Shown here: one piece after another, positions 17,800-23,220 of the stretch
Numbering within the stretch: the first letter of the stretch is position 1
Layout of the letters: every line of letters starts with the position of its first letter
Origin: Alphaproteobacteria bacterium
Lineage (GTDB): Bacteria > Pseudomonadota > Alphaproteobacteria > Rhizobiales > NORP267
Assembly: GCA_028599125.1 (NCBI GenBank)
Contig: JAQRMX010000063.1
Coordinates: 1 to 34,394, forward strand
DNA: 34,394 bases
Direction: 5' to 3'
Made by a program: the position numbers and the translations under genes
The notes under the pieces: generated by a model
Database searches by the model: none
Seen by the model: only the letters and a program-made list of their open reading frames with translations
What the model was told of the DNA's origin: nothing

Positions 17800-17835
17800 A
17801 GAATACTAATTTATAACAGAATACTAATTTATAAC
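17800..17835. repeat. Perfect 18-bp tandem duplication, AT-rich
   Basis: AGAATACTAATTTATAAC occurs twice in direct succession (17800-17817 and 17818-17835) with no mismatch. AT-rich sequence follows to about 17,870. The block resembles a DNA-unwinding element, but no DnaA boxes accompany it. Confidence 0.85.
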
Positions 17836-18273
17836 ATTTCCTATATAATACCTATTATTACTAGCACTGATATGGAATGTAACGCTGCACGAAGCAAAAA
17901 AGGCCTGAATAGAGGACCAAACCTAAAATACAGGCAGTAATCATTTGCGTGAAATAAAGGGGCGGGGCCCTTCCTTTTCCGGAAACGAATATAAATTTGC
18001 AAAATCCTTTGCAAAGGCAAGAACCGTTCCGTCTCTTTCCCTGTCCGGTATGGCATCATACCTCTCTCTGAACGCAATCTTTATTCCGTCTCACCAGAAA
18101 AAGAAAAAATTGTCCCCAAGAAAGTCGAATCATTGAAAAATGACCCCGTTGCGAATAAAATGGAGCATCCTTTTAGGATCGGGCTCCACAATTAAAAGGA
18201 GAAATAAGGCCTAAAAAGCGTAAGAAAAGAGCCACAGGGTTAAATCGATTCATTCTTCATCAAGGGGACGCCC

Positions 18274-19062
18274 ATGACCTATAAAATGATACTGACGGAA
18301 ACACAGGGCCGCGTCAGCCTCATCAGACTCAATCGCCCAGATGCTGCCAATGCACTTAACCGTGAACTCATAAGAGAACTCAATCATGCCCTTGACCGGT
18401 TCGAAGACGATGAGGACAGCGGATGCCTTATTATCACCGGCTCGGAAAACGTCTTTTCCGCCGGTGCCGAAATCAGAGAAATGAAGGACAAAAATTTCAC
18501 AGACATGCTTTATGAGAATTATATTGAAGAATGGGAACAGCTTACCCGCGTCCGCAAGCCTGTCATCGCGGCTGTTGCCGGTCATGCTCTTGGGGGCGGC
18601 TGTGAATTAGCCATGATGTGCGATTTCATCATTGCCGCCGAAAATGCCATCTTCGCCCAGCCGGAACTTGGCCTGGGAGTTATGCCGGGAGCCGGTGGAA
18701 CGCAGCGCCTGACCCGAATCATTGGAAAAGCAAAGGCTATGGATATGTGTCTGACAGGGCGCAGCCTCCTGGCTCAGGAGGCCGAGCAATCCGGACTGGT
18801 TAGCAGGGTTGTCCCCTGCGCAACATTGATGACAGAAGCGCTTAGCATAGCGCAAAAAATTGCGTCCATGCCTACAACAGCAACCTTAATGATCAAAGAT
18901 GCCGTTAATTCCGCCTATGAAACAACCCTGTCAGAAGGGATATCCTTTGAAAGACGCAGTTTTTATGCCCTGTTTTCAACCAGCGACCAGAAAGAGGGGA
19001 TGAACGCCTTTCTTGAAAAACGACCCGCCCGGTTCAGGAAGCGCCCCCAGACAGATCTCTGA
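18274..19062 (+). CDS. Enoyl-CoA hydratase (crotonase family)
   Basis: The product hydrates trans-2-enoyl-CoA to 3-hydroxyacyl-CoA, the second step of beta-oxidation. Its 262 residues match a single-domain crotonase. Both catalytic glutamates are present: Glu111 in GHALGGGCELAM and Glu131 in QPELGLGVMPGAGGTQRL, with the same 20-residue spacing as Glu144/Glu164 of the rat enzyme. The oxyanion-hole regions are FSAGAEI (61-67) and the glycine run at 107-109. The C-terminal helix region is complete. The ATG has AAGGGGA six bases upstream. This gene just before rpsT and dnaA is the standard Acetobacteraceae order and suggests vertical inheritance. Other crotonases share this fold, but the two glutamates favour a true hydratase. 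Confidence 0.94.
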   Translation: MTYKMILTETQGRVSLIRLNRPDAANALNRELIRELNHALDRFEDDEDSGCLIITGSENVFSAGAEIREMKDKNFTDMLYENYIEEWEQLTRVRKPVIAAVAGHALGGGCELAMMCDFIIAAENAIFAQPELGLGVMPGAGGTQRLTRIIGKAKAMDMCLTGRSLLAQEAEQSGLVSRVVPCATLMTEALSIAQKIASMPTTATLMIKDAVNSAYETTLSEGISFERRSFYALFSTSDQKEGMNAFLEKRPARFRKRPQTDL

Positions 19063-19552
19063 AGAGACACACTTGACCTCATAGGAGCTGCAAGGTAAAA
19101 GGGGAGTGGGTGTCTCATTCTTGCCTGTTTCTGCCCGCTTTGGAATTTTTCTGAAATCGTTTTTTCAGAGTCTTTGTTCATTGGATTCTCTTTCTGAATT
19201 TCTTCGGGGGGGGGGGAGAATTAAGGACGCTGAAGCAGCTGTTTATTCTTTTTTATCCGATTGTACTCTATTTTCAGACCAAAAGCTCTTTCTATATCCT
19301 GTTGGCCAGGGCTTTATGAGACCTTATGTTCGTGAAACCTCAAGCTCATAAAACCCTGTCTTTTTGTTCGGCTTATGCTATCCTGAGCTCTTGGTTGAGT
19401 AGCCACTGGGAATATTTCCGTACAGGCCCGACTATCCTTTTCCTGGAGCCTATTCATCCTCTAGGAAAAGCGCAGGATTTCGTTACAGTACAGAGCTTAT
19501 ATAAGGGATTATAAGACACAAAACAAAAAATCACTCCTCAGGCTAAAAAAAA
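19063..19552. other. Non-coding gap before the rpsT leader
   Basis: About 490 bases with two doubtful frames. One at 19106-19351 spans a run of 11 G; another at 19326-19514 encodes 62 residues ending AQDFVTVQSLYKGL. Neither has a ribosome binding site or a family I know. A CTTTTCCT/AGGAAAAG inverted repeat lies at 19437-19470, and a TATATAAG stretch near 19,498 could be part of an rpsT promoter, though no well-spaced -35 fits. Confidence 0.4.
19206..19216 (+). repeat. Homopolymer run of 11 G
   Basis: Eleven consecutive G, unusual in this AT-rich DNA. It falls inside a doubtful 81-codon frame (19106-19351), where a change in tract length would switch the frame. Confidence 0.8.
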
Positions 19553-19629
19553 TACAAAGAAAGAAAACATACAAAGAAAGAAACAAAGAAAGAAAACATA
19601 CAAAGAAAGAAAACATACAAAGAAAGAAA
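19553..19629 (+). repeat. Purine-rich 17-bp tandem array in the rpsT leader
   Basis: The unit TACAAAGAAAGAAAACA repeats at 19553, 19570 (expanded by an internal 12-bp duplication), 19599 and, truncated, at 19616. The array ends eight bases before the rpsT ATG, so it occupies the ribosome binding site. No GGAG-type sequence is present; the best anti-Shine-Dalgarno match is an AAAGAAAG repeat. Translation may depend on ribosomal protein S1 binding to the unstructured A-rich leader. Confidence 0.85.
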
Positions 19630-19637
19630 TTGATCAT

Positions 19638-19904
19638 ATGGCAAATACAAAATCGGCTAAAAAAGCGATCCGGAAAATTGAGGCACGTACCGCAGTAAAT
19701 AAGGAAAGAAGAAGCCGTACACGCAGCTTTGTGCGCAAGGTAGAACAGGCCATCTCTCTCGGAGACAAAGAGGAAGCCGCCTCCGCCTTCAAGGCAGCCC
19801 AGCCCGAAATCATGCGTGCAGCAACAAAGAAAGTTCTTCATAAGAATACCGCATCCCGTAAGATTTCCCGCCTTTCCGCACGTATCAAAGCAATGAGCGC
19901 CTGA
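19638..19904 (+). CDS. rpsT: 30S ribosomal protein S20
   Basis: S20 is a primary 16S rRNA-binding protein at the bottom of the 30S body. The 88-residue, lysine/arginine-rich product has the classic start [20 protein letters not shown], the three-helix bundle and the conserved [21 protein letters not shown]-terminal block. The ATG at 19638 is fixed by the conserved N-terminus, but the usual ribosome binding site is replaced by the repeat array just upstream. In E. coli S20 represses its own translation; a weak, repeat-based initiation site could serve similar tuning, which is inference. It is flanked by enoyl-CoA hydratase and dnaA as in related genomes, but separated from dnaA by an unusual 1.8 kb. 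Confidence 0.98.
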
Positions 19905-20189
19905 GGAAAAAGACCGCTCGTTTCTACAGATGCAAAAGCAAATATGAGAACAGGGTAGGTTTTGAGGAGAGCGGAACAAAACCGCAATCAATGATTTCAC
20001 GTTTTAACAAAACCCGCCTTGTCAATCTCTGGAATAAGGAGAGCTGGCTCCTTGTTGTCCCGACAGAAGACACAACAGGGAATCAGGAATTCCTCCAGCT
20101 GTAGAAATTACCTTAGTCTATGTCCGTTTATTTGGATTAAACGGTTATACAAACCATATGAAGGGCTTTCAGTTCAGTTATCAACCTAT

Positions 20190-20225
20190 AAGAAACATTG
20201 CAAAATTAAGAAACATTGCAAAATT
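20190..20225. repeat. Perfect 18-bp tandem duplication
   Basis: AAGAAACATTGCAAAATT occurs at 20190-20207 and again at 20208-20225 with no mismatch, in the gap between rpsT and dnaA. Confidence 0.85.
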
Positions 20226-20625: not shown

Positions 20626-20649
20626 ATGTCTGCAAAAATGTCTGCAAAA
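20626..20649. repeat. Perfect 12-bp tandem duplication
   Basis: ATGTCTGCAAAA is present twice in succession (20626-20637, 20638-20649), again in the rpsT-dnaA gap. Confidence 0.8.
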
Positions 20650-20652
20650 AAA

Positions 20653-21610: not shown

Positions 21611-21643
21611 TCACTCATCCAGTTCGTTCAAGTGGATGAGTGA
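21611..21643 (+). promoter_or_regulatory. Perfect 11-bp inverted repeat in the dnaA leader
   Basis: TCACTCATCCA (21611-21621) pairs exactly with 21633-21643 across an 11-base loop, ending 83 bases before the dnaA ATG at 21727. It could be an operator or a leader hairpin controlling dnaA; no T-run follows. Confidence 0.5.
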
Positions 21644-21726
21644 CGTATGGAATTGCAGTGGAAAGAATAAAAATACCCGTCAGGACAGATGTACCGGAGT
21701 CATCATCAAGAAGGAGACTGAAAGAC

Positions 21727-23220
21727 ATGTTGGCTGAGCAGATTTTTACCACAGAGAATGAAACCAGAACTCGACAGAGCCTCGGAAATTCAGGGATACC
21801 CAGTCAGTCTGAATGGAGAAGTTGGCTCTCCATGTGGCAGCGTGTCACCATGCATTTGCAAGCTGAACTTGGAGAAGACATCTTCTCAAGCTGGTTTGCG
21901 CGGGTCTCTCTGGAGAACGTACAGGACATGCGTGTTGCCCTTTCTGTGCCGACCCCGTTCCTGAAAAATTGGATCCGTACGCATTATATGGTCCATCTTC
22001 TGAAATTCTGGAAAGCCGAAAACAACAAGATTATCGCGATTGATCTCTGGGTCAGGGGGCGGGGACATGTCAGTAGTGGGCAAGATCGGGCGGTGCCCCT
22101 TAGGCCCGCCAGGCCTATAATGCTCCCCGGGTCCTCTGCTGCTGTCGCATCTTCTGAAGCGGTCATTGATATTGTCAGTTCAAGGCTTGAACCCCGCTAT
22201 ACTCTTTCGACATTTGTCGTTGGCCAGTCAAATGCGATGGCTCATCAGGCTGTTCAGGGTCTTTTCACAAAGCAAAGCTCATGGTCTGATTTTAATATTC
22301 TTTACGTGCATGGCGCGGTTGGCTTGGGAAAGACGCACCTTTTGCAGGCGGCAACACATGAAGCACGAACCCATAGTCAGAAATCTCCAGACAAAATCGT
22401 GTATCTGACAGCAGAGCGCTTCATGTACCGCTTTATCTCGGCACTCAAAGCAAATGACGCGCTCGCTTTCAAGAAACAATTGCGGAGTATTGAACTTTTA
22501 CTGATTGATGATCTTCAATTTCTTCAGGGCAAAGCGACACAACAGGAATTTTGTCACACACTCAATGAATTAATAGGAAAGGGGCAGCAAATTATCATCG
22601 CAGCGGATCGTTCACCTTCAGATCTGGACAGTTTTGATGACCGTATGCGCTCTCGCCTATCCGGAGGGCTTTTGCTTCCCATAACACCCTTTGATGCTTC
22701 TATGCGCCTTGATATATTGCGGCACAAATTGCGCGGCGCGCAGCAGCGCTTTCCGAAATTGCTCATTAGCGAGGAGACCCTTATGTTTATTTCGGAACGG
22801 ATACAAGGGAATGGACGGGATCTGGAAGGGGCCTTTAACAGGCTTCTGGCCCATCATCAATTCAATCAAACAGAAATCACAATTCCTGTTGCTGAAGGGC
22901 TCGTCCGTGACCTTGTCCAGAATGTCGACCCAAAGCGGGTTCGTATTGAACAGATCCAGCGCGTTGTCGCCAAGCATTTCAATATTTCCCGTCAGGAACT
23001 CATTTCAAGCCGACGGAGCCGGGCCATTGTCTATCCCCGTCAGATTTGCATGTATCTGGCGAAAACAATGACTGACCGTTCCCTGCCGGAAATCGGCCGC
23101 CGCTTCGGCGGGCGAGATCATACGACGGTTTTACATGCCATACGGAAAATTGAGAATATGAAACAGGATGAAGTAATTTCTCGTAAGATTGATTTATTGC
23201 GCCAGATGGCCGAGGAATAG
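21727..23220 (+). CDS. dnaA: Chromosomal replication initiator DnaA
   Basis: DnaA binds DnaA boxes at the origin, oligomerises with ATP and melts the duplex. From the ATG at 21727 the product has 497 residues. Domain I spans about 30-100 (EWRSWLSMWQRV, FSSWFARV). A variable linker is followed by the AAA+ domain with Walker A GAVGLGKTHLL (196-206), Walker B LLLIDDLQFLQGK (257-269) and sensor II GNGRDLEGAF (361-370). Domain IV has the basic loop SSRRSRAIVYPRQ and the DNA-binding signature GGRDHTTVLHA (461-471). I chose this ATG because AAGGAGA precedes it by ten bases. A GTG at 21640 would add 29 residues but lies inside a hairpin. The Walker A has Ala where GGVGLGKT is most common. Confidence 0.97.
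   Translation: MLAEQIFTTENETRTRQSLGNSGIPSQSEWRSWLSMWQRVTMHLQAELGEDIFSSWFARVSLENVQDMRVALSVPTPFLKNWIRTHYMVHLLKFWKAENNKIIAIDLWVRGRGHVSSGQDRAVPLRPARPIMLPGSSAAVASSEAVIDIVSSRLEPRYTLSTFVVGQSNAMAHQAVQGLFTKQSSWSDFNILYVHGAVGLGKTHLLQAATHEARTHSQKSPDKIVYLTAERFMYRFISALKANDALAFKKQLRSIELLLIDDLQFLQGKATQQEFCHTLNELIGKGQQIIIAADRSPSDLDSFDDRMRSRLSGGLLLPITPFDASMRLDILRHKLRGAQQRFPKLLISEETLMFISERIQGNGRDLEGAFNRLLAHHQFNQTEITIPVAEGLVRDLVQNVDPKRVRIEQIQRVVAKHFNISRQELISSRRSRAIVYPRQICMYLAKTMTDRSLPEIGRRFGGRDHTTVLHAIRKIENMKQDEVISRKIDLLRQMAEE

What the first reader, a model, noticed from the sequence alone, without database searches (positions are those of the whole stretch)
19553..19637. Repeat array replaces the ribosome binding site of rpsT
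A purine-rich 17-bp unit, repeated about four times with one internal duplication, ends eight bases before the rpsT start, and no GGAG-like site exists. A ribosomal protein gene normally has an efficient site. Copy-number change would alter leader length without touching the coding region, so it could tune S20 level, or the A-rich leader may recruit S1.
Basis: partly seen in the sequence, partly recalled or inferred. Interest (0 to 1): 0.55.

Follow-up and report, generated by a model that had tools for sequence, protein, structure and literature searches.

The report
A-rich repeat leader before rpsT
In front of a ribosomal protein gene, one small-genome bacterium carries a short A-rich repeated stretch where the usual ribosome-landing sequence should be, so the gene is probably translated from an unusually open leader by a less common but known route; whether repeat number tunes the gene is untested.

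Summary
The array is real: 19547-19629, four 17-mers plus one 12-mer, ending eight bases before the rpsT ATG (19638). It beats shuffles and its core motif occurs exactly nowhere else in its genome. The core Shine-Dalgarno (SD) site is missing: -0.9 kcal/mol, against -3.8 or stronger for all 24 ribosomal protein genes examined (one cluster) and a median of -5.3 for 116 distinct rpsT leaders of other bacteria (2 of 116 as weak). None of those carries this array; one has an unrelated 16-bp repeat. The leader is the most A-rich, and its start region the most open, of 192 genes compared. Most likely S20 is made by SD-core-independent entry on an open A-rich leader, a route known from E. coli. A lead: the AGAAAG in each unit could pair with CUUUCU at the extreme 3' end of 16S rRNA, the last copy being in correct register; that would put rpsT at the genome's median pairing strength. 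But this genome's own 16S tail could not be read, and AGAAAG shows no motif-specific enrichment before other genes. Short tandem repeats are common in this genome, so ordinary slippage or tandem duplication explains the origin. Copy-number tuning could not be tested: no second strain or congener was available.

The parts
19510..19515 (+). TATAAG, possible -10 element read by eye; would give a leader of about 115 nt that holds the whole array (weak inference)
   Evidence: by eye; the promoter scan of 19060-20100 found 0 promoter-like sites
19547..19629 (+). A-rich tandem array: four 17-mers, one 12-mer, trailing AAA
19581..19592 (+). 12-mer unit AAACAAAGAAAG, short by five bases
19621..19626 (+). 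Last of five AGAAAG copies (others start at 19558, 19575, 19587, 19604); 11 nt before the ATG; could pair with CUUUCU at the end of a 15-nt 16S tail
   Evidence: pairing is a prediction
19630..19637 (+). TTGATCAT, 8-nt spacer between array and start codon
19638..19904 (+). rpsT, ribosomal protein S20, 88 aa

Best explanation
In this lineage the rpsT leader has no GGAGG-type SD core and instead carries an array made by tandem duplication or slippage of an A-rich 17-bp stretch. The 30S subunit lands on this unstructured A-rich leader, probably helped by S1, possibly by pairing of the last AGAAAG with CUUUCU at the 3' end of 16S rRNA, and finds the ATG 8-11 nt on. Shown: the array, the missing core, the A-richness, the openness (by computation). 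Inferred: that the array is transcribed, the S1 role, the AGAAAG pairing, and any effect of copy number.
For: SD core pairing with CCUCCUUA is -0.9 kcal/mol for rpsT; 24 of 24 ribosomal protein genes of one cluster are at -3.8 or stronger, median -6.9 (families confirmed). The genome as a whole uses SD: median -4.0 before 219 ORFs against -1.3 before 5744 ATGs of any kind. Across 116 distinct rpsT leaders elsewhere the median is -5.3 and 2 are as weak. A content of the last 60 nt is 0.67: 0 of 192 own genes (max 0.52) and 0 of 116 relatives' leaders (max 0.40) reach it. Cost of opening -20..+12 is 1.8 kcal/mol: 0 of 192 genes as low, median 10.0; the 24 ribosomal protein genes range from 6.2 up. 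S1 with six domains in one 595-codon frame is present. A-rich sequence upstream of AUG promotes initiation in E. coli reporters with weak SD, and S1 is suggested to bind A's 10-20 nt upstream (PMC7043885, passages). With tail CCUCCUUUCU rpsT pairs at -5.6, the genome's median (96 of 192 genes weaker or equal); that tail is encoded in relative G037, and a 15-nt tail GAUCACCUCCUUUCU was measured in B. subtilis (PMC6107228, passages).
Against: No expression data. No promoter was found by the scan, so transcription through the array is assumed. The openness follows from composition: the leader folds no worse than its own dinucleotide shuffles (z 0.69). Within the last 20 nt A content is high but not extreme (16 of 192 genes as high). 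About 17% of sampled ORFs (37 of 219) have core pairing as weak under a first-ATG rule, so SD-weak genes are not rare here. The own 16S tail reads N. AGAAAG before other genes: own genome 4 in 9 near positions against 3 in 16 far ones, and some letter permutations do as well or better (AAAGAG 6 against 1); other bacteria 5 against 0. With a 13-nt tail (GAUCACCUCCUUU) rpsT stays weak (-2.2; 22 of 192 as weak).
Confidence: 0.6

Rival explanations
1. Contingency locus: slippage changes the number of 17-bp units, which changes leader length or the number of S1 or standby sites and so sets the S20 level.
For: Units are nearly identical and one is five bases shorter, so the array has changed length in the past. 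Short tandem arrays are frequent here: 42 in 335 kb, or 12.5 per 100 kb, against 38 in 561 kb, or 6.8 per 100 kb, in loci of other bacteria.
Against: The last unit and the spacer stay the same whatever the copy number. No second strain or congener was available, and the viral contig scan found no copy. A MutS gene is present, so no repair defect was shown. The loci compared differ in base composition and gene content. A core ribosomal protein is an odd target.
Confidence: 0.12
2. Short or leaderless mRNA: transcription starts inside or after the array, which then acts only as an A-rich DNA element upstream of the promoter.
For: No promoter was found upstream; A-rich DNA upstream of promoters can raise transcription (recalled).
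Against: The scan found no promoter inside or after the array either, and by eye the array offers only 3-of-6 matches to TATAAT.
Confidence: 0.1
3. Decay: a relaxed leader in a reduced genome has lost its SD and filled with slippage repeats; S20 is simply made less efficiently and the array has no role.
For: Small genome (1.43 Mb against 2.8-3.8 Mb in the 5 family members held) and many short repeats.
Against: 24 of 24 other ribosomal protein genes keep their SD, and the rpsT start is the most open of 192, which fits compensation rather than plain decay.
Confidence: 0.15
4. Assembly artefact: copy number or register in the array was misassembled (84-contig draft).
For: Draft genome in 84 contigs.
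Against: The 83-bp array is shorter than common reads, lies well inside a contig and has distinguishable units.
Confidence: 0.03

Closest known systems
SD-weak, A-rich translation initiation regions (Saito et al. 2020, PMC7043885; passages seen)
   Same: Weak anti-SD pairing, A's upstream of the AUG, low structure
   Different: Here the A-rich leader is a tandem array before a ribosomal protein gene whose relatives have an SD
Extended or shifted SD use of the 16S tail (PMC6107228, PMC10783764; passages seen)
   Same: Complementarity outside the CCUCC core, aligned to the same 16S tail
   Different: The Alphaproteobacteria profile listed there is CCUCCUUU / AAAGGAGG; here the core itself is unpaired and the pairing would lie wholly at CUUUCU
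Simple-sequence contingency loci / VNTRs (recalled)
   Same: Short tandem units next to a start codon, past length change
   Different: Non-coding, before a housekeeping gene, no variation seen because no strains were available

Membership tests
SD-independent A-rich initiation region | Weak pairing to the anti-SD core | tested here: met
   -0.9 kcal/mol; 0 of 24 ribosomal protein genes as weak
SD-independent A-rich initiation region | A enrichment upstream of the AUG | tested here: met
   0.67 A in last 60 nt, 0 of 192 genes as high; last 20 nt 0.55 A, 16 of 192 as high
SD-independent A-rich initiation region | Low structure at the start | tested here: met
   1.8 kcal/mol to open, 0 of 192 as low; explained by composition
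SD-independent A-rich initiation region | A's needed for translation | not testable with these tools
   Needs reporter mutants
Extended 16S-tail pairing (AGAAAG:CUUUCU) | Own 16S ends CCUCCUUUCU | not testable with these tools
   Own 16S 3' part reads N; the tail is encoded in relative G037; mature end not established
Extended 16S-tail pairing (AGAAAG:CUUUCU) | Motif in SD register | tested here: met
   12 of 16 matches to the full tail complement with 7-nt core spacing; 3 of 6249 ATGs of any kind reach 12; 168 of 20000 shuffles of the last 11 nt do. Found after the fact
Extended 16S-tail pairing (AGAAAG:CUUUCU) | Motif enriched before other genes | tested here: inconclusive
   4 near against 3 far in 199 own genes, 5 against 0 in 250 genes of other bacteria; some permutations score as high
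Contingency locus / VNTR | Tandem array beyond chance | tested here: met
Contingency locus / VNTR | Copy number varies among strains | not testable with these tools
   No congener among the 40 relatives searched
Contingency locus / VNTR | Expression depends on copy number | not testable with these tools
   Needs reporters

The most novel reading that the evidence does not exclude
A ribosomal protein gene has swapped its SD for a tandem array in which every unit offers a second kind of ribosome-binding word, AGAAAG, complementary to the outermost 3' end of 16S rRNA; upstream copies act as standby or loading sites and only the last is in initiation register, so array length would set how many 30S subunits are held ready for S20 synthesis.
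Probability: 0.1. Interest if true: 0.7.

Novelty: new variant of a known kind. Interest (0 to 1): 0.35.

Why it matters
If right, it is a natural case in which a gene of the ribosome itself lost its SD core and kept working through an A-rich open leader, in a genome that otherwise uses SD. That makes a clean natural test of how much the core is needed, and of whether the outermost 16S tail can serve in its place. If the array proves unstable it would also be a rare repeat-tuned ribosomal protein gene.

Tried and rejected
Repeat elsewhere: no exact copy of the 13-mer outside the array in the own genome; a 25-mer of the array found 0 stretches in viral contigs. Rfam: 0 families at gathering score in the window. 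Upstream reading-frame idea: the rpsT frame is open for about 41 codons upstream (129-codon open frame), but one search lists no ATG, GTG or TTG start before 19638 in that frame, so an extended S20 was rejected. Promoter: 0 promoter-like sites in 19060-20100, both strands. RNA structure: no unusual fold. Inverted repeats in 19060-19660: 0 pairs. Mismatch-repair loss as the cause of repeats: MutS_V found in a 945-codon frame, so not supported; MutL not tested.

Caveats on counts. The gene sets are ORFs of at least 150 codons in the window plus sampled stretches, starting at the first ATG near the ORF start; starts were not verified. Starts of the 24 ribosomal protein genes were picked by me from recalled N-termini and Pfam positions, and some choices pass over nearby starts with weaker pairing, for example rpsN ATG -1.3, rplF GTG -1.1, rplV ATG +1.9, so the -3.8 bound leans towards good sites. 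All 24 lie in one cluster; other ribosomal protein genes were not examined. Relatives' leaders: 121 loci, 116 distinct, not all of the same order. Two of the 40 other genomes gave no rpsT match.

Papers: nine searches answered; one was turned back for a term with a sign. None of the titles and abstracts listed describes a repeat array in an rpsT leader, but the lists are capped and the library is partial. Passages only were seen of PMC7043885, PMC10783764 and PMC6107228; the rest only as listings.

Full report
What is there. The rpsT leader holds an 83-bp array, 19547-19629: four 17-bp units and one 12-bp unit, a trailing AAA, then TTGATCAT and the ATG at 19638. Its repeat score of 124 exceeds the top of 100 window shuffles (92) and of 1000 shuffles of the leader alone (115). 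Its 13-base core is found exactly 5 times in the genome, all here. The gene is a full S20, between an enoyl-CoA hydratase family gene (18274-19062) and dnaA (21640-23220).

Setting. The genome is 1.43 Mb in 84 contigs; the 5 family members held are 2.8-3.8 Mb and no congener is held. The order is probably that of Methyloligella and Rhodomicrobium: the rpsT leader of order member G037 is letter for letter that of a named Methyloligella record; the order name Rhizobiales is recalled.

Is the SD really missing? Yes for the core. Pairing with CCUCCUUA is -0.9 kcal/mol. All 24 ribosomal protein genes of the S10-spc-alpha-type cluster examined are at -3.8 or stronger, median -6.9 (families; start choices are mine and lean towards good sites). 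The genome uses SD in general: median -4.0 before 219 ORFs against -1.3 before 5744 ATGs of any kind; still, 37 of the 219 ORFs are as weak as rpsT. In 116 distinct rpsT leaders of other bacteria the median is -5.3 and 2 are as weak. None of the 5 family members has the array; among the 121 loci one, L106, has an unrelated 16-bp repeat of 2.5 copies.

What replaces it? The last 60 nt are 67% A, more than in any of 192 own genes (max 52%) or 116 other rpsT leaders (max 40%). Opening the start region costs 1.8 kcal/mol; no other of 192 genes is as low, median 10.0. This follows from composition, as shuffles fold no worse. In E. coli, A-rich sequence before weak-SD start codons promotes initiation and S1 is a suggested partner (PMC7043885, passages). 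S1 with six domains is encoded. This is the best-supported mechanism, about 0.6.

Each unit holds AGAAAG, complementary to CUUUCU. The 16S tail GATCACCTCCTTTCT is encoded in relative G037; B. subtilis has a measured 15-nt tail of this sequence (PMC6107228, passages). The leader AGAAAGAAATTGATCA matches 12 of 16 letters of the full tail complement AGAAAGGAGGTGATCC, ungapped, with 7-nt core spacing. Of ATGs of any kind 3 of 6249 reach this, of own genes 1 of 199, of genes in other bacteria 0 of 250; with the array kept, 168 of 20000 shuffles of the last 11 nt do. With this tail rpsT pairs at -5.6, the genome's median. Against it: the idea came after seeing the data, the own tail reads N, a 13-nt tail leaves rpsT weak, and AGAAAG is not clearly enriched before other own genes. 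I give it about 0.3 as a contributor.

Origin and tuning. Short tandem arrays are about twice as dense here as in the other loci fetched (12.5 against 6.8 per 100 kb; composition differs), and several are perfect, so slippage or tandem duplication is an ordinary origin. The shortened unit shows past length change. Whether copy number varies today or matters is open; nothing held here can test it.

Verdict. Observation confirmed; interpretation partly supported; a new variant of a known kind of leader, of moderate interest.

Noticed in passing
window 19206-19216: A run of 11 G in the intergenic region upstream of rpsT, the longest G or C run in the 376 kb sampled.
   Followed up: partly
window 17800-17836, 20189-20225, 20626-20650: Perfect 18-, 18- and 12-bp tandem duplications, two of them near rpsT.
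   Followed up: partly
L139 113-833: CRISPR-like array: 11 copies of a 36-bp repeat at 65-66 bp spacing with unlike 29-30-bp stretches between (the 36-bp length read by eye). No cas genes were looked for.
   Followed up: partly
L136 8000-8011: Codons for YSDD, as in reverse transcriptases (motif recalled), in a stretch near the 16S gene contig; read by eye only.
   Followed up: no
L106 (genome G011): A 16-bp tandem repeat, 2.5 copies, in the 150 bp before rpsT of another member of the order, with no sequence likeness to this array by eye.
   Followed up: no
L129 2253-2299 and 2186-2222; L135 1073-1136; L136 780-840: Perfect short arrays elsewhere in the genome: 6-bp units 7.8 and 6.2 copies, 9-bp unit 7.1 copies, 11-bp unit 5.5 copies.
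   Followed up: no
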